Assembly (NCBI GenBank): GCA_019359315.1
Contig: JAHHHO010000026.1
Span: forward strand, 1-64,000
Direction: 5' to 3'
DNA from: Myxacorys californica WJT36-NPBG1
GTDB taxonomy: Bacteria > Cyanobacteriota > Cyanobacteriia > Leptolyngbyales > Leptolyngbyaceae
DNA: 64,000 nt
A program made the position numbers and the translations under genes. Shown piece by piece: positions 33,424 to 42,268 of the stretch (position 1 is its first letter; every line of letters starts with the position of its first letter). The notes beneath the pieces are model-generated. The model saw only the letters and a program-made list of their open reading frames with translations, was not told the origin of the DNA and searched no databases.

Positions 33424-34593
33424 TTAAACGTTCTCAAATGTGATGGTTATGACCGCATCGTTAAAGTCGAGATCGCCACCAGCATACAGATCCTCAATAC
33501 TAAAGCTAGTACTTCCGGCGGCAGTTGTACCTGCGCCAATAAAGTGATCAAACTGATCTGCGTTTGCAGCGACGAAGTTGGAGTAGATATTGGGATTTTT
33601 GCCATTGAGGGCGTCATCTACTGTTGCATCCGCAATCAGATAGGTCGCGTAGACTCCACCTCCCGTCAGATCTGCCGCTACATCTCCCGCTCTCGCGCTA
33701 AAGGTAACGCCATCTGCCTGCGATCGCCGGACGATTGCCAAACCATAGCCTGCATCTCCTGGCTTATAGGACGTTCCATCACTCGGATCGATTACTGTTC
33801 CAAGCGCGTCTTCGATGCGGTACAAGCCCACCGTATTGTTGTAGTTAGCTGTGATGCTCTGGGTATTGATCAAGCTTCTAACCTGACCCGTGCGATCGCG
33901 CAGATCAAGCACTTGGTCTTGGGGTGCAGCAGGCAAATTAATGGGCGGAGTCTCAAATGTCGCTGTCAAAATCGCATCGTTAAAGTCGAGATCGCCGCCG
34001 CCAAACAGATCCTCCACCACGATTTTGCCATCTTCGGTTGTGCGCCAATGGTCAAACCCACCGTCCGAGTTAGCTGCCGTGAAGTTGAAGTAAGCGTTTA
34101 CGTCACCCCCTTGCAGAACGCTCTCGGCAGTATTGTTGGCAACGATATAGGGCGCATAGAGCGCTCCCCCTTGAAGCGCAACCGGGACATTTCCTGCCCT
34201 TGGATCAAACGTAATGCCATCACCAGCGGTTTGCGATCGCCGCACGGCTGCCTGACTGTATCCAGCATCCCCAGGCGCATAAGAGGTTCCACTGCTTGGA
34301 TCGATGACTGTACCTAGAGTATCCTCCACTCGGTAAATACCGACGGTGTTGTTGTAATCTGCAGTAATGGTCGTGGTATTAAAGAGTCCTCGAACGAGTC
34401 CCGTTAAAGATCGCAGGTCAAACACTTGGTCTTGAGGAGCGGCAGGAAGGCTTGCGCTTGATGCACCGCTGGGAGGGGTTGGAGGCGGGGTAAGGGGCCT
34501 GGGAGTTGTATCTAATACGGTAGTCTGATTTTGAAGAATGTCGGTGGTTAGGCCCGCAGATGACGAGCTAGAAATGGATTCACCCATAACCAT
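33424..34593 (-). CDS. double DUF4114-domain protein
   Basis: A 389-residue acidic protein of two tandem copies (about 50-220 and 225-389) of a DUF4114-containing unit. Each begins with LPAAPQDQV(F/L)DLR, contains TVIDPS-GTSY-PGDAGY and ends with GGGDLDFNDA or AGGDLDFNDA, the DUF4114 signature, probably a Ca-binding loop. The N-terminus is Ser/Pro-rich with no signal peptide; such proteins are often exported surface or adhesion proteins. CAGGGAG eight bases before the ATG at 34593 sets the start. An intact antisense frame of 257 codons in the same region is a coding shadow. Confidence 0.85.
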   Translation of the reverse strand: MVMGESISSSSSAGLTTDILQNQTTVLDTTPRPLTPPPTPPSGASSASLPAAPQDQVFDLRSLTGLVRGLFNTTTITADYNNTVGIYRVEDTLGTVIDPSSGTSYAPGDAGYSQAAVRRSQTAGDGITFDPRAGNVPVALQGGALYAPYIVANNTAESVLQGGDVNAYFNFTAANSDGGFDHWRTTEDGKIVVEDLFGGGDLDFNDAILTATFETPPINLPAAPQDQVLDLRDRTGQVRSLINTQSITANYNNTVGLYRIEDALGTVIDPSDGTSYKPGDAGYGLAIVRRSQADGVTFSARAGDVAADLTGGGVYATYLIADATVDDALNGKNPNIYSNFVAANADQFDHFIGAGTTAAGSTSFSIEDLYAGGDLDFNDAVITITFENV

Positions 34594-35331
34594 GGTGATA
34601 ACTCCCTGAGAAATGTACAACAGTCTTTGTCTTCTACGTGCAATATCAAAGATCGGTCGCTCATTGCACCAGCAGTGCGACCGGATTCACCCTTAATAGA
34701 TAGTAAATCAAACGAAAGCTAAAATAATTTTGTACAACGTAAAAATACTGAATTAAGAAATAAAAATTGCTACATAAATAATTTCTTCAATACGGAAAAC
34801 TTCATTAAAGGAAGCGCTAAAAAAACTCAGTATCACAGTGAAAATAAGCAATACACAATAATGAACTGAATCCAAACATCTTTGTTTCATTGAGCACAAA
34901 GATAATTAATTATAAAAATTTTTAACTGAATTAATGAATACAGATTAATTCTACATAATGTTCACATTTCACGTATCGCATTTCACTTAGATGAGTGATG
35001 TTTACACTAAGGGCAAAGTTGTAATCAATACTCAGTTTTTGCTGCTTAACGAAACGCTTAGAATCATTGTTTTGGTTCTCTTGAGACACACTATGGTGTC
35101 ACCTTCAGCTATCTAGAAATCTATAATTAATCAATCTAAAACTGTTTAGCGATAAGCAAATCAACTAAAAGATGCCACTATCAGATCAGTCGGTAAGGGC
35201 ATGAAGTGTCCTTACGACCTGTCGCGCTAATGAACAGAGTTGCTATTAAATCAGCGATCGCTTCAAAATGGCAAACGTATCTAAACTTATACGAGAAGTG
35301 AAGCTGAGAAAAATAGCGTTACTGCGATCGC
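34594..35331. other. AT-rich leader/promoter region of the DUF4114 gene
   Basis: About 740 bases without a supported gene between two minus-strand genes. The sequence is markedly AT-rich compared with its surroundings. It probably holds a long leader and promoter for the DUF4114 gene. No repeat array or structured RNA was recognised. Confidence 0.45.
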
Positions 35332-35823
35332 TTAGGAATTACCGTTATTTTTCGGTCGATTTAAGGCTCTACACTTCTCCTGAGCCGCTTCAAACGCTTC
35401 GAGATAAGCTTTACCACCCAACATGACATCGCCATAGTACTCATAAGGCATGGAGCCATAGATCGGGAGCGGATCGTCTTCAGGATAATCTTCCTTTGCT
35501 TCCTCGATCGCTGCTTTCAACTTCTTGGCAGTTAGCTGTTGTGCCGCAAAATAATAAAGTTCTTCCGGCTTGCGATTTAAGGAAGAAAAACTTGGATCAA
35601 TAATGCGTGTCGTTTCTGTACCGTTCTGAGACTCGCTAAGTTCTAACCAGCTATGCTCAATGGGTTTATGAGGCGCACCTGCAAACACCAAAAAACCTTG
35701 AACATATTGTGCGCCTTCGACTAGCGCAACTGCCTTTGCAGTATTCTCAAAACTGGCTTTCGCTTTGCTTTTGAGACGATTTGCAATCTCAATTGATCGC
35801 TCAGCATCCAACAACTTGTCCAT
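35332..35823 (-). CDS. conserved-looking protein of unknown function
   Basis: A 163-residue soluble protein with no signal peptide or membrane helix. A central segment HSWLEL...TTRIIDPSF resembles the His and Asp strands of transglutaminase-like folds, but no catalytic Cys is evident in the N-terminal helix region (the only Cys is near the C-terminus). I do not recognise the family. Regular secondary structure and normal codon use support a real gene. It stands alone between the DUF4114 gene and the peroxiredoxin. Confidence 0.65.
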   Translation of the reverse strand: MDKLLDAERSIEIANRLKSKAKASFENTAKAVALVEGAQYVQGFLVFAGAPHKPIEHSWLELSESQNGTETTRIIDPSFSSLNRKPEELYYFAAQQLTAKKLKAAIEEAKEDYPEDDPLPIYGSMPYEYYGDVMLGGKAYLEAFEAAQEKCRALNRPKNNGNS

Positions 35824-35871
35824 TACAGAAAATTATTTTTGGCACTATCCTATCCATTGTAGGGATGAATC

Positions 35872-35909
35872 CGTAATTCGTAATCAGAATTATCCAATTA
35901 CGAATTACG
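35872..35909. repeat. perfect inverted repeat of the CGTAATTCGTAAT type
   Basis: CGTAATTCGTAAT (35872-35884) pairs with ATTACGAATTACG (35897-35909) with a 12-base loop. It lies between two minus-strand genes, 13 bases from the peroxiredoxin stop. It may act as a terminator, and its sequence resembles a related repeat at 54646-54684. Confidence 0.7.
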
Positions 35910-35922
35910 AACGAATGAACCA

Positions 35923-36654
35923 TTACGCAGCAAAGTACGAGGCGACGGCTTCCGATCCGCCGATTAATTTGCCATCGATGAACACTTGAGGAACGGTGGT
36001 TGCACCTGTCATCGCTTTTAGCGATCGCAAGGTGACGTTCTGACCCAGCACAATTTCTTCGTAATCCAAGCCGTTCTCGCTCAGCGTCTGCTTCGCGTTG
36101 GCACAGAACGGACAGCCTACTTTCGTAAACAGCGATACGGTTTTGGGCTTTTCTGCATGAGCGTTGATGTAGTTCAACATCGTGTCTGCATCAGATACTT
36201 TGAACGGATCGCCCGGTTCATCGGGTTCGATAAACATCTTTTCAATCGTGCCATCTTTCACCAGCATCGAGTAGCGCCACGATCGCTTACCAAATCCTAG
36301 ATCCGTCTTGTCAACGAGCATTCCCATGCCTTCGGTAAACTCGCCATTCCCATCGGGAAGTAGCCGAATATGATCAGCGCGCTGATCTTTTGCCCATTCG
36401 TTCATCACAAACGTATCATTAACAGAAATGCAAACGATCTCATCAACACCATTGTCCTTAAACACTTTTGCAAGATCGTTGTATCCAGGAACATGAGTTG
36501 AAGAACACGTTGGCGTAAATGCTCCAGGCAATGCGAAAACGACTACAGTTTTACCAGCAAAAATATCGTCAGTGGTGATGTTGACCCACTGATTATTTTC
36601 ACGGGCGCGAAAGGTAACGCTAGGAACTTTTTGCCCTTCTCGATTGGCAAGCAT
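35923..36654 (-). CDS. peroxiredoxin 5-glutaredoxin hybrid
   Basis: A 243-residue fusion. Residues 1-165 are a Prx5-type peroxiredoxin with the peroxidatic Cys50 in [15 protein letters not shown]. Residues 170-243 are a glutaredoxin with CPFC (181-184), TVPQVFIDG and GGSEA. Such hybrids reduce H2O2 and alkyl hydroperoxides in the cytosol using glutathione through their own Grx domain. The length matches other bacterial hybrids. AGGAGA nine bases before the ATG supports the start. It is a single-gene unit. Confidence 0.95.
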
Positions 36655-36822
36655 AAATGAGTCTCCTGTTAATTAAACCCTCTAAGCGTATTCGGAACGA
36701 GTACGAGTTGTCAACTAAGAACTTTCTAGCGCTTACAAAGCAACTTCTTTGAGCATCGCGTGCTAATTGCACAGACTTCGGCACTCTCTATGACATTCTT
36801 TGAAATAGTAAATGCTTCTTGA

Positions 36823-37767
36823 TTAGTCGTCTAACGCTGCAAACGCATACTTATTTTCAGGCCGCTCAACTTTTGTAGCGGCTGTCAGTTTCTGAAGAAA
36901 TTCTTCTGCTAACGTTGAAAATGCTTTTGCCCCTGCCGTTCCTGGGTTGCTCAGCACAACAGGCGTGAAGGCATCAACTGCCCTTGCAACATTGACATCT
37001 ACTGGAATGCGTGTCTTGAATAATTTCGCTTCGCTGAAATCTTCATTGAGCCGCTTCATCACTTGCCCATGATAGCGGCTTGAGAACAGGTTGCCAGAGA
37101 GCGTAAACGCAATGCCTAAAAGCTCGATCGCTAAGGGTCCTGCTTCTGTCCGATGAAGCTCTCTTAACTTTGAAATCCGGCGTTCTAAAAGCTGGATTCC
37201 GATGAGCGACAGCGGCTCTGGGCGAGCTGGAATAAAATAGAAATCGCTGGCTAATAATCCGCTTCGAGTAATGAGGTTATACCCAGGAGCGCAATCTAAA
37301 ATGATCAGGTCGTAGTCTTTGACGATCGGTTGCAAGAGCTTACGAATCAAATTCTTCTCAAAATCGTTCCACACTTGCTCAAAGTCTGCAACTCCTGTCT
37401 GAACGGCAGTCCGGTGCAGCATGTCAGAGACGAGAAACTCATCGTATAGCTCAATATCTCCTGGCAACAAATCTAAGCCTTTGACGTTAGAGATATAGGC
37501 ACGAATCGCTTCGGGTACAACCGTTGGCAATTCTTTGTCAGATAAAATTGCTCGTTTGACTAAGTTTCTTAAGGTACGTTTGTCACCACGAACTTTAGCG
37601 AAATCAGCAGGCGTCATGAGGCTCAGTGTTGCGCTGATTTGAGTATCTAGATCAACAATGAGAACGCGCTTTTGGTGATGCTTGGCAAGGCAAGTAGCAA
37701 GATTGACCGTCAGCGTGGTTTTGCCAACACCGCCTTTCATGTTTGCAGTTGCGATGATGTGAGCCAT
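36823..37767 (-). CDS. ParA-family ATPase (stand-alone)
   Basis: A 314-residue P-loop ATPase of the ParA/MinD (deviant Walker) class. It has the signature NMKGGVGKTTLTVN, Walker A' VLIVDLDTQ and Walker B YDLIILDCAPGYN. ParA ATPases dimerise on DNA and move plasmids, chromosomes or protein cargo with a ParB-like activator. No ParB of its own lies downstream; the ParB-like protein on the other side of the divergent region may serve it. AGGAGG nine bases before the ATG sets the start. The upstream region has TATA-like elements in both directions. Confidence 0.9.
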   Translation of the reverse strand: MAHIIATANMKGGVGKTTLTVNLATCLAKHHQKRVLIVDLDTQISATLSLMTPADFAKVRGDKRTLRNLVKRAILSDKELPTVVPEAIRAYISNVKGLDLLPGDIELYDEFLVSDMLHRTAVQTGVADFEQVWNDFEKNLIRKLLQPIVKDYDLIILDCAPGYNLITRSGLLASDFYFIPARPEPLSLIGIQLLERRISKLRELHRTEAGPLAIELLGIAFTLSGNLFSSRYHGQVMKRLNEDFSEAKLFKTRIPVDVNVARAVDAFTPVVLSNPGTAGAKAFSTLAEEFLQKLTAATKVERPENKYAFAALDD

Positions 37768-38210
37768 GCGTTGCGCCTCCTGAGTCGTGATGCCTCTCCG
37801 AACGAGACTATATCATCTGGCACATCATAATATGAATTTGCAACCCAAGGTGAGAAAGGCATTTGAATTAAATAGCATTTTCTAAAAATAAAAATAGTTA
37901 TTTTTTAAGGAGAGCTAACTATGTTCAAGCTTTCGCTTTCGACGTCTCGACCAATAGCTACGGATCTTACATACTTAGCTATGACTACCGAGCGATCGCG
38001 ACTCGCTTTGTGAGTGAACGATAAAGCTTTCTCTACAGAATTAAAGCTTTTCCCAAAACTCATCCCTCTCTTGTAGAACCACTGAACCTTCAACGTCGAT
38101 CAAGCAAGACAAGTGAGAAAGTAGTGCGCTTGATATCGCTAAATCATTCCTCTGAAGTGGCGCTTTTCGCTGATCTCGGCTCTCGCTCGATGCATCTCTA
38201 ATACCCTCCT
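37768..38210. other. divergent region of the ParA / nuclease-ParA locus
   Basis: About 440 bases. The ParA-side half has TATAT and TATTAT elements consistent with promoters. The middle holds an AT-rich tract and a ribosome binding site with a tiny open frame (37921-38013). A longer antisense frame (37905-38093, 62 codons, TTG start) overlaps it. Centromere-like (parS) repeats were looked for and not found. Confidence 0.45.
37921..38013 (+). CDS. possible 30-residue small protein or leader peptide
   Basis: An ATG at 37921 follows AAGGAG by eight bases and an AT-rich promoter-like tract, the best ribosome binding site in the gap. It opens a 30-codon frame (MFKLSLSTSRPIATDLTYLA and ten more residues). 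The peptide resembles no family I know. It lies about 200 bases upstream of the nuclease-ParA fusion and could be a leader or small regulator, or chance. The antisense strand is also open in this region. Confidence 0.3.
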   Translation: MFKLSLSTSRPIATDLTYLAMTTERSRLAL

Positions 38211-39740
38211 GTGACCGCTATGCCAGTTTCAGCAAATCCTGCTCGATTTAAGTTTTTAGGTTCTATCACTCTCAGTAGCAGTGAGTCAGATGTCGAACAC
38301 AAAGTCATCATTCCGCTTCTACAAGCTCTCGGCTATCACGATGGGGACTGGAAAACGCAGGTAACGATCGGCAAAGTCAAGCTAGATTTTTTGGTACAGT
38401 CGCATCCTTCCACGCTTCATGCTTTGCCGTACTTAGTGATTGAAGCAAAATCTCCTAGAAAAGATCTCTCTCGAAATCTTTGGCAGTTGAAGAGCTACTT
38501 GCGGGAAACGGGCGCAGCGTTGGGGTTATTAACGAACGGCTATCAGTTTCACTTGCTCTATCACTATGATGGAGAAATTAGCGCGATCGCTTCATATTCT
38601 AAAGAAACGCTGATCGAAAATTTTTCGTTGTTCTACATACTCTGCAGTAAAGAAACTTGCCTAAAATTTGGTGATGCGATTCATCAAAGTCAGCAGCAAG
38701 TTCACTCTAATTTTCTAAGTCACATTGCAACTGCTTTTGAGAACCAAGACATGTTTGAACTATTTAAAAGAAGAAATCCTTCTGGCGCAGCAGTTAGCCC
38801 AGAGCGTAACTTTAAAGAAACCACACCCGCCAGATCTCCGATCGAGCGAGAGACCGCATCTCCATCTAGCGATCGTGTGCAAAGGAAAGGCATGGTGATC
38901 ACGGTCTTCAACAACAAGGGTGGCGTTGGTAAAACGACAATGACGATTAACCTTGCTGCCGCTCTAAGCAAGCTAGGTAAACGGGTTCTTTTGATTGACG
39001 TTGACGCACAAGCAAATTTGACAATGGGGTTAGGAATTGATCCTCTAGAAGATGTTGAGGATCAGGGCAAAAAAGATATTGTTCATCTATTAACTGAGTC
39101 GAGAACTCTTCTACCTAGTACGATCATCTCCAAGACTTGGGGAGATGTTGAATTAGATATTGTTCCCTCTAATATTCGCCTGATTAAGGAAGAAGCTTTT
39201 CTGATTCAGGCGGTAGACGGTGAATATGCTCTAAGAAAAAAACTAAGAGATTATCGACACGACTATGACTATATATTTATTGACCCGCCTCCATCTTTCG
39301 GCAAATTCAACGAGATTGCTTTGATGGCAGCCTCAGCGATTTTGATTCCGACTCAATTAGCTCCCTATCCAATTCGGGCACTGGAATTTGTGATTGGCAG
39401 AGCGATAGAAGTGCAGCGAGATAATCCTCTACCAATATTGGGGATTGCCGTCAGTATGTACGACAAAAAAGTGAAAATTTTACATCGACAAATGGCTGAA
39501 AAAATCAAAGAGATTGTAAGGGGTTTTCCTACTTATGGAAATATTGGTTTGTTTCCTGAAGAAACCTGGATACCCCAACTTAAAATTGTGTCTTCTATAC
39601 CTGAAAAAGGCTATCCGCTTTGCTATGCAGAGTTTGATTCTTCTTTAATCAGAGCAGATAAGGAAGCCGCTCAAGATGCGTTTAATTGCTACTTGAAAAT
39701 GGCTCAACATTTGGTACTACTAATGGAACAAGGAAACTAA
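38211..39740 (+). CDS. fusion of type I restriction-like nuclease domain to ParA ATPase
   Basis: A 509-residue two-domain protein. Residues 15-185 match the HSDR_N domain of type I restriction endonucleases. The PD-(D/E)XK residues appear in order: Glu29 (DVEHK), Asp59 (KLDFLV), Glu78-x-Lys80 (VIEAK) and the following Gln92 helix (WQLKSYL). A polar linker (190-226) leads to a complete ParA ATPase: KGGVGKTT (236-243), LIDVDAQ (261-267) and FIDPPPS (356-362). All catalytic residues are kept, so both parts should be active. It lies three bases before the ParB-like gene. GTG 38211 or ATG 38220 could start it. The function is unknown; see findings. Confidence 0.9.
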   Translation: MTAMPVSANPARFKFLGSITLSSSESDVEHKVIIPLLQALGYHDGDWKTQVTIGKVKLDFLVQSHPSTLHALPYLVIEAKSPRKDLSRNLWQLKSYLRETGAALGLLTNGYQFHLLYHYDGEISAIASYSKETLIENFSLFYILCSKETCLKFGDAIHQSQQQVHSNFLSHIATAFENQDMFELFKRRNPSGAAVSPERNFKETTPARSPIERETASPSSDRVQRKGMVITVFNNKGGVGKTTMTINLAAALSKLGKRVLLIDVDAQANLTMGLGIDPLEDVEDQGKKDIVHLLTESRTLLPSTIISKTWGDVELDIVPSNIRLIKEEAFLIQAVDGEYALRKKLRDYRHDYDYIFIDPPPSFGKFNEIALMAASAILIPTQLAPYPIRALEFVIGRAIEVQRDNPLPILGIAVSMYDKKVKILHRQMAEKIKEIVRGFPTYGNIGLFPEETWIPQLKIVSSIPEKGYPLCYAEFDSSLIRADKEAAQDAFNCYLKMAQHLVLLMEQGN

Positions 39741-39743
39741 TCT

Positions 39744-40535
39744 ATGGATTTTACTAGGCGACAACAACAGATTATTGATAGGTTACGTCCGAAACCTGTT
39801 CATCATGGTCAATTGGAAACGATATTGATCGCTGTTCCAAATTTAAGCCCTGAAGATATTTCACCTGAGCGATGGCAAGTTCTCAAAGATAGCCTTGTCC
39901 AAGAAGGTAGCAATTTGATTCCTCTAGTTGTGCGTCGCACTGAAGCTTACGCCGATGAAGACTATGAGGTCATTTATGGAGCAGATTGGTGTCTGGTTGC
40001 GAGAGAACTAGACATTGCGAGATTATGGGTTTGGGTGTTTGATCTCGATGATGAACAGGCTGCTGTTACTAGGTTAGAGATGGAGTTGTTACTCGGTAAT
40101 TCGGCAATTTCCACATCGTCGCCTGACGAAATTCAGCAGTTAAGTACTTTGATACAACGATCGGAGCAGTCGCTTGATAGGAAGATACGCCAACAATTTA
40201 ACAGTTTGTTGCAACACCTAGAGCAGTCATTTGAGGAAAGAATTACTCAGCAGATAGATGTCTTGTTTGAGCGTCTAGAGCAATCACTTGAGCAGAAGAT
40301 TAGTCACCATTCTGAGACAGTGAATAGCGCGATCGCCGAACTCAAGCAAACTTTTACCGAACAGAGTAGTTCTCGCCGAAAAGTAGCAACATCGAGCGAG
40401 AGTCGATATAGCAAAATGAAAGTTGCTGAGCTTCGACAGCTTGCTAAGGAACGTCAGTTAAACCCACCTTCACGCCTACTCAAGCAGGAACTCATCGATT
40501 TGCTAGATAACGCTGATCAATCCCTGGTTAGCTAA
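39744..40535 (+). CDS. ParB-like, coiled-coil, SAP/Rho-N-like domain protein
   Basis: A 263-residue three-part protein. Residues 20-110 resemble the ParB N-terminal domain (NLIPLVVRRTE, YEVIYGADW, WVFDLDDEQA), but the usual GERR motif reads GADW, so CTP/nuclease-type chemistry may be lost. Residues 120-205 form a coiled coil with a repeating LEQSLxxKI pattern. Residues 223-258 (KMKVAELRQLAKERQL, then KQELIDLL) look like a SAP or Rho-N nucleic-acid-binding motif. It begins three bases after the fusion gene and should be its partner. No classical ParB DNA-binding HTH is visible. Confidence 0.82.
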   Translation: MDFTRRQQQIIDRLRPKPVHHGQLETILIAVPNLSPEDISPERWQVLKDSLVQEGSNLIPLVVRRTEAYADEDYEVIYGADWCLVARELDIARLWVWVFDLDDEQAAVTRLEMELLLGNSAISTSSPDEIQQLSTLIQRSEQSLDRKIRQQFNSLLQHLEQSFEERITQQIDVLFERLEQSLEQKISHHSETVNSAIAELKQTFTEQSSSRRKVATSSESRYSKMKVAELRQLAKERQLNPPSRLLKQELIDLLDNADQSLVS

Positions 40536-40603
40536 GCAGAGTGTTAGGCTGAAGGAAGATAGTTTGGGTCATTGACCTGACTATTTTTCAATTCATTCTT
40601 TTG

Positions 40604-42268
40604 ATGATGCAATTGGTGACTTCACTTCCTCTCTCTGATGAACAGTTATTATTTACACCTGCGACTCCTCAAGCAGATGCAATTCCGCTTATTTTCGCAT
40701 TTCCTAATGAATATACCGTTGGCATCACGAGCTTAGGTTTTCAGGTCGTTTGGGCAACGTTGGCATCGCGACCTGATTTAGAAGTCAGCCGATTGTTTAC
40801 GGATGGTCATGAGCCGCTACCTTCACACCCTGAAATTCTCGGCTTCTCGATGTCGTGGGAACTGGATTACGTCAATATTTTAGGACTGTTAGAATCGTTA
40901 AACGTTCCGATTCGGAGCCAAAATCGCACGTCCGCTCATCCCCTCGTGTTTGGTGGCGGCCCTGTTCTCACTGCCAATCCCGAACCTTATGCAGACTTCT
41001 TTGACGTATTTCTGCTCGGCGATGGTGAAATTTTGCTCAATGCTTTCATCACTGCGTATCAAGAGGTTCGCCACGCCGATCGCAACACACAGCTCCGACA
41101 TCTCGCGCAAGTCCCAGGCATCTACGTTCCGAGTTTGTATGAAGTGACGTATGTAAGTTCAGAGGGCGCGATCGCAGCCATCCATCCCATCGACAGCACG
41201 ATCCCCGCACGAGTCGAAAAGCAAACCTATCGCGGCAATACCTTATCGACCTCTACCGTAGTGACCGAGAGAGCGGCGTGGGAAAACATCTTTATGGTGG
41301 AAGTTGTTCGCAGTTGCCCTGAAATGTGTCGCTTCTGCCTCGCCAGCTATCTTACTCTGCCGTTTCGGATTGCCGATGTAGAAGACTCGCTTATGCCCGC
41401 GATCGCACGAGGATTAGAAGTCACCAATCGGCTCGGACTCCTCGGAGCTTCGGTGACTCAACATCCAGAATTTGAGACGCTGCTAGACTACCTCAACGCC
41501 CCAAAATATGACGACGTACGAATTAGTCTTGCCTCAGTTCGTACCAACACCGTGACGGAGAAATTAGCGAAAACGCTAGTCAAACACGATTCAAAATCGA
41601 TCACGATCGCAGTGGAAAGCGGCAGCGCTCGCTTACGCCAAATTATCAATAAAAAACTGACTACTGACGAAATTATTCAAGCCGGAATTAACGCAAAGGC
41701 AGGCGGTTTGAGCAGCGTCAAATTATATGGAATGGTCGGCATTCCGGGCGAGGAATCTGAAGACCTCGATCACACCGTCAAGATGATGCGAGATCTGAAG
41801 AAAGCCGCTCCTGGCTTGCGGCTCACGCTTGGATGTAGCACCTTTGTGCCGAAAGCACATACCCCGTTTCAATGGTTTGGCGTTAACTCAAAAGCCGAAA
41901 AACGGCTCCAGTTCTTGCAGAAAAACCTGCGATCGCAAGGCATTGACTTTCGCCCTGAAAGCTACAACTGGTCAGTTATTCAGGCATTATTATCTCGTGG
42001 CGATCGTCGCCTTTCTCGCCTGCTCGAACTCACTCGCCACTATGGAGATTCTTTAGGCAGTTATCGTCGCGCCTTTAAAGAATTGCGGGGCCACCTTCCT
42101 GACTTAGAGTTTTATGTCCATCAGAATTGGTCACTAGATCAAGTCTTGCCTTGGAGCCATCTGCAAGGTGCATTACCTCCAGCCACCCTAGAAAAACATT
42201 TGCAAGGTGCGATCGCGCTGTTTCCTCAGCCTCCGCAGGAACTAGCCGTCGCCCAGCCTGTTGGGTAG
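40604..42268 (+). CDS. B12-binding-domain radical SAM protein
   Basis: A 554-residue radical SAM enzyme. An N-terminal cobalamin-binding-like domain (about 30-170, with GGGPVLTANPEPY and FLLGDGE) precedes the SAM barrel. The cluster motif is Cys238-x3-Cys242-x2-Cys245 (SCPEMCRFC), with a later GMVGIPGE strand. Relatives are annotated as methyltransferases or TIGR03960-type proteins of unknown substrate. The sequence ATG/TTG at 40601-40607 offers three tandem starts; I use 40604. It follows the ParB-like gene by about 70 bases but need not belong to that system. Confidence 0.85.
   Translation: MMQLVTSLPLSDEQLLFTPATPQADAIPLIFAFPNEYTVGITSLGFQVVWATLASRPDLEVSRLFTDGHEPLPSHPEILGFSMSWELDYVNILGLLESLNVPIRSQNRTSAHPLVFGGGPVLTANPEPYADFFDVFLLGDGEILLNAFITAYQEVRHADRNTQLRHLAQVPGIYVPSLYEVTYVSSEGAIAAIHPIDSTIPARVEKQTYRGNTLSTSTVVTERAAWENIFMVEVVRSCPEMCRFCLASYLTLPFRIADVEDSLMPAIARGLEVTNRLGLLGASVTQHPEFETLLDYLNAPKYDDVRISLASVRTNTVTEKLAKTLVKHDSKSITIAVESGSARLRQIINKKLTTDEIIQAGINAKAGGLSSVKLYGMVGIPGEESEDLDHTVKMMRDLKKAAPGLRLTLGCSTFVPKAHTPFQWFGVNSKAEKRLQFLQKNLRSQGIDFRPESYNWSVIQALLSRGDRRLSRLLELTRHYGDSLGSYRRAFKELRGHLPDLEFYVHQNWSLDQVLPWSHLQGALPPATLEKHLQGAIALFPQPPQELAVAQPVG

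What the first reader, a model, noticed from the sequence alone, without database searches (positions are those of the whole stretch)
38211..40535. Nuclease-ParA fusion with a ParB-like/SAP partner: candidate undescribed defence or DNA-partition system
One protein joins a complete type I restriction-like nuclease (Glu29, Asp59, Glu78-x-Lys80 and the Gln92 helix all kept) to a complete ParA ATPase (KGGVGKT, LIDVDAQ, FIDPPPS). Three bases later comes a ParB-like protein whose GERR motif is lost and whose DNA-binding end is replaced by a coiled coil and a SAP/Rho-N-like motif. ParA enzymes place cargo along DNA; here the cargo carries its own DNA-cutting domain. Possible roles are plasmid or phage exclusion, partition coupled to cutting of unsegregated DNA, or DNA repair placement. 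That these parts form one machine is inference from their operon.
Basis: partly seen in the sequence, partly recalled or inferred. Interest (0 to 1): 0.9.

Follow-up and report, generated by a model that had tools for sequence, protein, structure and literature searches.

The report
Nuclease-armed ParA with ParB-like partner
Many cyanobacteria carry a two-gene cassette, on chromosomes and on some plasmids, in which a DNA-partition motor (ParA) is fused to a restriction-type DNA-cutting domain and followed by a rebuilt ParB-like partner; it looks like an unnamed relative of plasmid-partition systems that may cut DNA as well as handle it.

Summary
Window 38211-39740 (+) is one ORF joining an HSDR_N_2-type PD-(D/E)XK domain to a complete ParA ATPase. 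Three bases later, 39744-40535 encodes a ParB-like N-domain (structure match to ParB, Z 14), a long helix and a SAP/Rho_N-like end; both GERR arginines are absent in 36 of 36 lineage-I relatives. It is not a one-off: two profiles hit 84 of 386 genomes of the phylum (fusions, nuclease-less and broken copies together). In 38 of 41 named lineage-I loci the fusion and B stand together. D59, E78 and K80 are invariant (38/38). Six loci have ParA+B without a nuclease. Neighbours are mostly housekeeping genes and no defence family recurs, though single neighbours match defence models. Six distinct cyanobacterial plasmids carry it; on one of 12.6 kb it is the only annotated ParA-type ATPase. I found no description in the papers searched. 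Best reading: a nuclease-armed variant of a ParA/ParB DNA-maintenance module, shared between plasmids and chromosomes, probably acting in replicon maintenance or competition.

The parts
38211..39740 (+). Gene A: nuclease-ParA fusion, 509 aa (GTG 38211; alternative ATG 38220)
   Evidence: (AlphaFold2 mean pLDDT 85)
38259..38615 (+). HSDR_N_2-type PD-(D/E)XK domain, residues 17-135; E25, E29, D59, E78-x-K80, Q92
   Evidence: HSDR_N_2 at E<=0.01 in 38 of 38
38886..39737 (+). ParA ATPase domain, residues 226-509; KGGVGKT, LIDVDAQ, FIDPPPS
   Evidence: Soj/ParA structures, best Z 34.4, rmsd 1.8, 251 aligned
39744..40535 (+). Gene B: ParB-like N-domain, long helix, SAP/Rho_N-like end, 263 aa
39798..40103 (+). 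ParB/Srx-fold N-domain of B, residues 19-120; GERR replaced by GADW
40122..40385 (+). Long helix (coiled coil) of B, residues 127-214
40395..40532 (+). SAP/Rho_N-like C-terminal domain of B, residues 218-263
36823..37767 (-). Stand-alone second ParA (ParA2), divergent from gene A; recurrent neighbour, membership of the system uncertain
37768..38210 (.). Intergenic region between ParA2 and gene A; no clear centromere-like repeat array found

Best explanation
A and B form a two-gene DNA-maintenance module of ParA/ParB type that carries its own nuclease. Shown: gene order, domains, conserved active-site residues, and presence on plasmids and chromosomes of cyanobacteria. Inferred: ATP-bound A dimerises on DNA through its ParA domain and so concentrates the PD-(D/E)XK domain on DNA. 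B binds DNA through its SAP/Rho_N or helix-hairpin-helix end and touches A through its ParB-like domain and coiled coil, stimulating its ATPase. B of lineage I has lost the GERR arginines, so it is probably not a normal CTP clamp. The ATPase cycle thereby decides where and when the nuclease may cut. Likely purpose: keeping or choosing replicons, either by partition of the carrier DNA with cutting of competing or wrongly placed DNA, or, in chromosomal copies, by destabilising incoming plasmids. The module was probably exchanged between plasmids and chromosomes; some copies lost the nuclease and kept the ParA-B core.
For: Two-gene unit: 38 of 41 named loci with fusion plus B; 35 of 38 in other lineages. 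Nuclease kept under constraint: D59/E78/K80 38/38 each; in 44 N-termini of other lineages (at least one duplicate pair) E 44, K 43, D 42; dN .115 against .207 for ParA, dS 1.7 and 3.1, in one comparison with genus sister G288. ParA domain closest to Soj/ParA structures. B N-domain has the ParB fold. Among 36 B proteins Rho_N matches 13, HHH_3 5, SAP 3 at E<=0.01. ParA+B without nuclease in 6 loci, so ParA+B looks like the core. Plasmid copies: pLBA, ABRG53g (only annotated ParA-type ATPase on 12.6 kb), pPg_01, and three different versions on three plasmids of Nostoc UHCC 0870.
Against: No biochemical or genetic datum. No centromere-like site recognised beside the gene. The three Nostoc plasmids also carry ParM and/or other ParA/ParB genes and pPg_01 a second AAA ATPase nearby, so the module need not be their partition system. 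Patchy distribution and several broken copies show that it is dispensable. One row (L197) lacks the catalytic Lys. Some fusions have no B in the flank held (L017; L173, L187, L191). In two nuclease-less loci (L084, L086) B reads GDRE, keeping one GERR Arg, so loss of the CTP site is not family-wide.
Confidence: 0.45

Rival explanations
1. A plain partition or positioning system in which the PD-(D/E)XK-fold domain binds DNA (for example an operator or centromere) without cutting it, taking the place of the N-terminal DNA-binding domain of long plasmid ParA proteins (that comparison recalled).
For: Plasmid-borne copies; nuclease-less ParA+B pairs exist; B keeps the ParB fold.
Against: Catalytic D, E and K are kept beyond what DNA binding alone should need (38/38 each; 42, 44 and 43 of 44).
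Confidence: 0.2
2. A defence system against phages or plasmids: B recognises foreign or replicating DNA, ParA loads on it, the nuclease cuts.
For: Type I restriction-type nuclease domain; patchy presence (84 of 386 genomes) with broken copies; several unlike versions in one strain. Single neighbours match PADLOC models strongly, e.g. HEC-01A (E 4e-151), AbiU (3e-129), SspH (2e-52), DolB (8e-33).
Against: No PADLOC model fits A or B; no PADLOC family matches more than 1 of 111 neighbours (no control set); the commonest neighbour families are housekeeping ones; nuclease-less copies persist.
Confidence: 0.22
3. A chromosome-maintenance device: ParA and B place a nuclease for recombination, repair or decatenation in cells with many chromosome copies.
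For: Present in single-contig genomes such as G011, G089, G099, G245, so on the chromosome there; SAP/HhH-type ends resemble DNA-binding modules of repair proteins (resemblance recalled).
Against: 302 of 386 genomes gave no hit at the cut-offs used; broken copies occur; also carried by plasmids.
Confidence: 0.1

Closest known systems
ParABS chromosome/plasmid partition systems (Soj/Spo0J, ParA/ParB)
   Same: ParA domain complete and closest to Soj structures; partner encoded directly downstream and built on the ParB N-domain fold; also found on plasmids.
   Different: Nuclease fused to ParA; partner of lineage I lacks the GERR arginines and has a long helix plus SAP/Rho_N or HhH end where ParB has its HTH (HTH place recalled); no parS-like site recognised.
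Type I restriction endonuclease subunit HsdR, N-terminal nuclease domain (HSDR_N_2/HSDR_N)
   Same: Same nuclease family by Pfam in 38 of 38 proteins at E<=0.01, with D...E-x-K and, in lineage I, Gln.
   Different: No SF2 helicase motor; the motor domain is a ParA ATPase.
PadC and other ParB-CTPase-fold proteins outside canonical parAB (PMC12704722; passages seen)
   Same: ParB fold in another architecture; PadC is a structural match (6ryk, Z 11.6).
   Different: The passages seen name HNH, UPF0020, methyltransferase, CBS and DUF3850 fusions, and say that only the DUF3850 fusion regularly has a parA neighbour; this nuclease-ParA neighbour is not among them.
McdA/McdB carboxysome positioning in cyanobacteria (PMC6328274, passages seen)
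   Same: ParA-type ATPase plus a partner in cyanobacteria; McdA structures match the ParA domain (Z 30.1).
   Different: McdB has no ParB similarity (paper); B here does. A carries a nuclease.
Osa, a ParB/Srx-family plasmid fertility-inhibition factor (Maindola et al. 2014, cited in PMC12839542 and PMC10853773; itself not read)
   Same: ParB/Srx-type protein in plasmid conflict; weak structural match (4ovb, Z 4.9).
   Different: Here the nuclease is a separate PD-(D/E)XK domain on the ParA partner.

Membership tests
ParABS partition system | ParA with deviant Walker A (KGGxxKT) | tested here: met
   K236-K241 38/38, T242 37/38 with one Ser; Soj/ParA structures, Z up to 34.4
ParABS partition system | Partner with ParB CTPase-fold N-domain | tested here: met
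   Foldseek E 5.2e-6 to Noc; Z 14.0 to ParB; hhalign with one canonical plasmid ParB over 75 columns, probability 92
ParABS partition system | GERR nucleotide motif in the partner | tested here: not met
   Arg absent at both positions in 36 of 36 lineage-I proteins and 18 of 18 of the mixed alignment; two nuclease-less loci of lineage II read GDRE
ParABS partition system | HTH parS-reading domain in the partner | tested here: not met
   Predicted structure goes from the ParB fold to one long helix and then a SAP-like domain; no HTH family among the Pfam hits listed for window B
ParABS partition system | parS/centromere site near the genes | tested here: inconclusive
   No conserved repeat or palindrome array seen; sites elsewhere were not sought
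ParABS partition system | Stabilises its replicon | not testable with these tools
   Needs a plasmid-loss assay
Type I restriction HsdR | HSDR_N-type PD-(D/E)XK nuclease domain | tested here: met
Type I restriction HsdR | SF2 helicase motor in the same protein | tested here: not met
   No SF2 helicase family in window A; ParA instead
Type I restriction HsdR | HsdM and HsdS genes alongside | tested here: not met
   None among the six proteins of window 35335-42265 scanned
Known anti-phage defence system (PADLOC-DB 2.0.0) | Match to a system's protein models | tested here: not met
   Hits are partial or weak: PDC-M28B over 42 residues of the P-loop (E 7e-8), DrmMI and mad2 over 45-75 residues (E 3e-4, 6e-4); B: LeoA over its coiled coil (E 3e-5)
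Known anti-phage defence system (PADLOC-DB 2.0.0) | Location in defence islands | tested here: inconclusive
   At E<=1e-10, 41 PADLOC families match among 111 neighbours of 20 loci, each one protein only, some strongly (HEC-01A, AbiU, SspH); no control set run
McdAB carboxysome positioning | Partner without ParB similarity | tested here: not met
   B has the ParB fold; McdB described as lacking it (PMC6328274)

The most novel reading that the evidence does not exclude
A partition-type machine that cuts: ParA cycling, triggered by B, licenses a built-in restriction nuclease, so DNA not held or not recognised by the module (competing plasmids, unsegregated or incoming replicons) is destroyed while the carrier replicon is kept. 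Chromosomal copies would be domesticated versions giving incompatibility-type immunity to plasmids.
Probability: 0.25. Interest if true: 0.85.

Novelty: new variant of a known kind. Interest (0 to 1): 0.64.

Why it matters
ParA ATPases are known as positioners of cargo. A widespread, conserved fusion of a ParA to an apparently intact restriction-type nuclease, with a rebuilt ParB as partner, would join DNA segregation to DNA destruction in one two-gene unit. Most genomes of the phylum sample gave no canonical ParB hit (61 of 386 had one), and cyanobacteria often keep several coexisting plasmids (PMC10899382, passages), so how they keep or reject replicons is an open question that this module makes testable. 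It could also matter for transforming cyanobacteria.

Tried and rejected
Tried and negative. Viral contigs: the nuclease profile gave 12 HSDR_N loci, none with a ParA motif in the ORF (one, L047, cut by the contig end); single-protein scans with pLBA A and window A found no relative. Phage records: 148 matched window A, none over 80% of the query; none matched the pLBA nuclease part. Centromere search upstream of A: k-mers shared between loci lay mostly around the start codon of related loci, and GCGATCGC recurs at varying places; no array. Promoter/terminator scan: 3 promoter-like sites (shuffles 4.7) and 3 terminator-like (shuffles 2.1, sd 1.4). PDB sequence search with B: the 60 of 345 hits shown are mostly coiled-coil or viral-stalk look-alikes; with the nuclease profile: one designed protein (E 1e-6) and BpuSI (E 0.07).

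Rejected. 'Chance or frame artefact': the architecture recurs in many genomes. 'Two genes misjoined in one assembly': 38 named records show the same ORF. 'Replacement of canonical ParB': module genomes have canonical ParB more often, not less (29 of 67 against 32 of 319), though genome size and plasmid content confound this.

Caveats. Only lineage I was searched over the whole genome collection (two peptide patterns); lineages II-IV outside the phylum were tested only in plasmid and phage records. 'No nuclease gene beside' the six nuclease-less pairs and the B genes were judged by eye. The ParA tree has long branches and unsettled bootstraps; I use it only to say that nuclease-less ParAs fall among fusions. 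dN/dS is one pair with large dS. The neighbour census dropped 9 of 120 chosen proteins (8 ParA-type, 1 B fragment) and has no control.
Full report
WHAT IS THERE. The window lies in a 5.97-Mb genome in 128 contigs. Its named relatives (41 loci) are all titled as cyanobacteria, nearest Myxacorys almedinensis. Gene A, 38211-39740 (+), is one ORF of 509 codons; gene B, 39744-40535 (+), follows after three bases. A has an HSDR_N_2 domain (25.9 bits, cut-off 25) and a ParA-type ATPase (AAA_31 E 1.5e-44). AlphaFold2 with a 38-row alignment gives mean pLDDT 85; the nuclease part shows helix 25-39, strands 47-53, 56-62 and 75-79, helix 90-100, strand 104-108, with D59 in the second strand and E78/K80 at the end of the third; residues 188-224 have pLDDT under 50. 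The ParA part matches Soj/ParA structures (best Z 34.4, rmsd 1.8, 251 aligned). The nuclease part was not searched alone, so its fold rests on Pfam (at E<=0.01 HSDR_N_2 in 38 of 38, HSDR_N in 29, PDDEXK_3 in 10) and on the residues.

GENE B. By sequence alone window B is only weakly ParB-like (ParB_N E 0.011), but 19 of 36 members of A6 reach E<=0.01. The model (pLDDT 86) matches ParB and Noc at about residues 19-120 (Z 14.0, rmsd 2.1, 93 aligned) and, at Z 6-7, SAP/Rho N-terminal domains at 218-263. Between them is one long helix, 127-214. At the two Arg positions of GERR the 36 proteins have D or E (30, 6) and W, L, I or V (31, 2, 2, 1). The B genes of the nuclease-less loci L084 and L086 read GDRE and so keep one Arg. 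C-termini vary: Rho_N in 13, HHH_3 in 5, SAP in 3 of 36 at E<=0.01. In other lineages a 'LKCGITKGKKLDALK'-like block, which I read as hairpin-like, and a Rho_N end occur in the same protein.

HOW WIDESPREAD. A profile of 20 relatives (A1) hits 67 of 386 genomes of the phylum at E<=1e-60; 48 of the listed matches run through both domains in one stretch (my count). A profile of five divergent members (A8) hits 45 of 386 at E<=1e-45. The union is 84 of 386, 28 with both; it includes nuclease-less and broken copies. The 386 are a sample drawn evenly from the phylum. Lineage names are mine: I (window type) and II are separated in the ParA tree; III (pLBA, ABRG53g, Nostoc unnamed10) and IV (Nostoc unnamed9, contig C96 of this genome) are two starred groups joined in one weaker group (long branches). 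Two small single-contig genomes (G165, G308; 1.7-1.8 Mb) also have a fusion plus B (L184, L185). Over the species-genome collection, two lineage-I peptide patterns gave 198 stretches and 41 relatives.

THE UNIT. Of those 41 loci, 38 have nuclease and ParA in one ORF with B downstream on the same strand; L125 has ParA+B without nuclease, L156 has no intact fusion ORF, L157 ends at the contig end. Of 40 loci taken for lineages III/IV (L164 and L165 repeat sequences already in hand), 38 gave a fusion ORF (L188 without its first part) and 35 of these a B-like ORF; L187 and L191 have none in the flank held, and L173 none in its short flank. In lineage I, L017 has A without B. ParA+B pairs without a nuclease gene beside them are L083, L084, L085, L086, L090 and L125, whose upstream gene reads as a tRNA synthetase. 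In the ParA tree nuclease-less ParAs fall among the fusions more than once, which suggests loss of the nuclease. Broken copies include L088, L089, L093, L094, L095, L096 and L036's B.

CONSTRAINT. D59, E78, K80 are 38/38 in lineage I and invariant in the 20-row alignment of lineages I and II. In 44 N-termini of lineages III/IV (one duplicate pair and several near-copies) the equivalent E is 44, K 43, D 42. Between this genome and its genus sister, dN is .115 for the nuclease.207 for ParA.337 for the linker.124 and .44 for the two halves of B; dS is 1.69, 3.1, saturated, 1.10, 1.19. In this one pair the nuclease is the slowest part of A, and the helix and end of B the fastest part of the operon.

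SURROUNDINGS. In the window A-B lies between a radical-SAM gene with the mre genes on one side and ParA2 with a peroxiredoxin-glutaredoxin gene on the other (mre naming recalled from the translations). In 20 other loci with about 10 kb each side the neighbours are mostly glycosyltransferases, tRNA synthetases, desaturases and other housekeeping types (part of whose output was cut, and 79). Among 111 of 120 nearest neighbours (9 ParA-type or B pieces left out by me), 41 PADLOC families match at E<=1e-10, each a single protein; the strongest are HEC-01A (4e-151), AbiU (3e-129) and SspH (2e-52). So single defence-type neighbours exist, none recurs, and I ran no control. ParA2 is in 97 of 386 genomes; I found it within 2 kb of the module in 19, divergent in 18. 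ParA2 and the module occur together more often than by chance (48 of 67 against 49 of 319), but shared ancestry and genome size are not controlled.

PLASMIDS. The nuclease part of pLBA's ATPase has relatives in six plasmid records and that of C96 in two, one shared: six distinct plasmids, pLBA (two strain records; it carries a terminase gene), Nostoc sp. UHCC 0870 unnamed4, unnamed9 and unnamed10, Pseudanabaena ABRG53g and pPg_01. On ABRG53g (12.6 kb, CyRepA1-family replication gene) A+B is the only annotated ParA-type ATPase; on pLBA A is the only ORF that the A1 profile hits. The three Nostoc plasmids also have ParM and/or other ParA/ParB genes; pPg_01 has a second AAA ATPase nearby, and only 16.5 kb of it was seen. 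Genome G042 has one copy identical by eye to the unnamed10 protein, two more at the coordinates of unnamed9 and unnamed4, and a chromosomal lineage-II copy with a broken B.

MECHANISM. Shown: gene order, domains, residues, distribution. Inferred from the families: ATP-dependent DNA binding of A through ParA, stimulation by B, DNA contact of B by its SAP/HhH end, cutting by the PD-(D/E)XK site. The nuclease-less pairs show that ParA+B can persist alone; the constraint on the nuclease suggests that where present it is used. I therefore favour a DNA-maintenance or competition role with a real nuclease (0.45) over silent-nuclease partition (0.2), phage/plasmid defence proper (0.22) and repair (0.1).

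LITERATURE. Full-text searches (two returned no paper) and passages of PMC12704722, PMC6328274, PMC1913061, PMC12839542, PMC10853773, PMC7159879, PMC10899382 and PMC5379612 showed no description of a nuclease-ParA fusion. No paper was read whole, and only open-licence papers are held, so this is not proof of absence.

VERDICT. A real, conserved, apparently unnamed architecture; new variant of the ParA/ParB kind; interest 0.64.

Noticed in passing
L162 (own genome contig C96), 979-2322 and 2319-3002: The same genome holds a second, divergent fusion+B operon (447 and 227 aa), lineage IV, on a 14-kb contig with housekeeping-type genes.
   Followed up: yes
window 36823-37767 (-): Stand-alone ParA2 divergent from gene A; beside the module in 19 of 67 module genomes, but in 97 of 386 genomes overall.
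   Followed up: partly
L159, L160, L163: One Nostoc strain carries three different versions of the module on three plasmids that share parts of their annotated gene order and also have ParM and/or other ParA/ParB genes.
   Followed up: partly
L184, L185: Fusion+B in two small (1.7-1.8 Mb) single-contig genomes; the B protein there is about 312 aa with repeated blocks and a SAP-like end.
   Followed up: partly
L039-L050: Viral contigs carry HSDR_N-type proteins of about 350 aa without ParA, similar between contigs.
   Followed up: no
L093, 4790-5494: A copy in G060 in which most of ParA is missing while nuclease, Walker A and B remain, closely joined.
   Followed up: no
window 33424-34620 (-): 398-aa protein with two similar halves (GGDLDFNDA in each), function not examined.
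   Followed up: no
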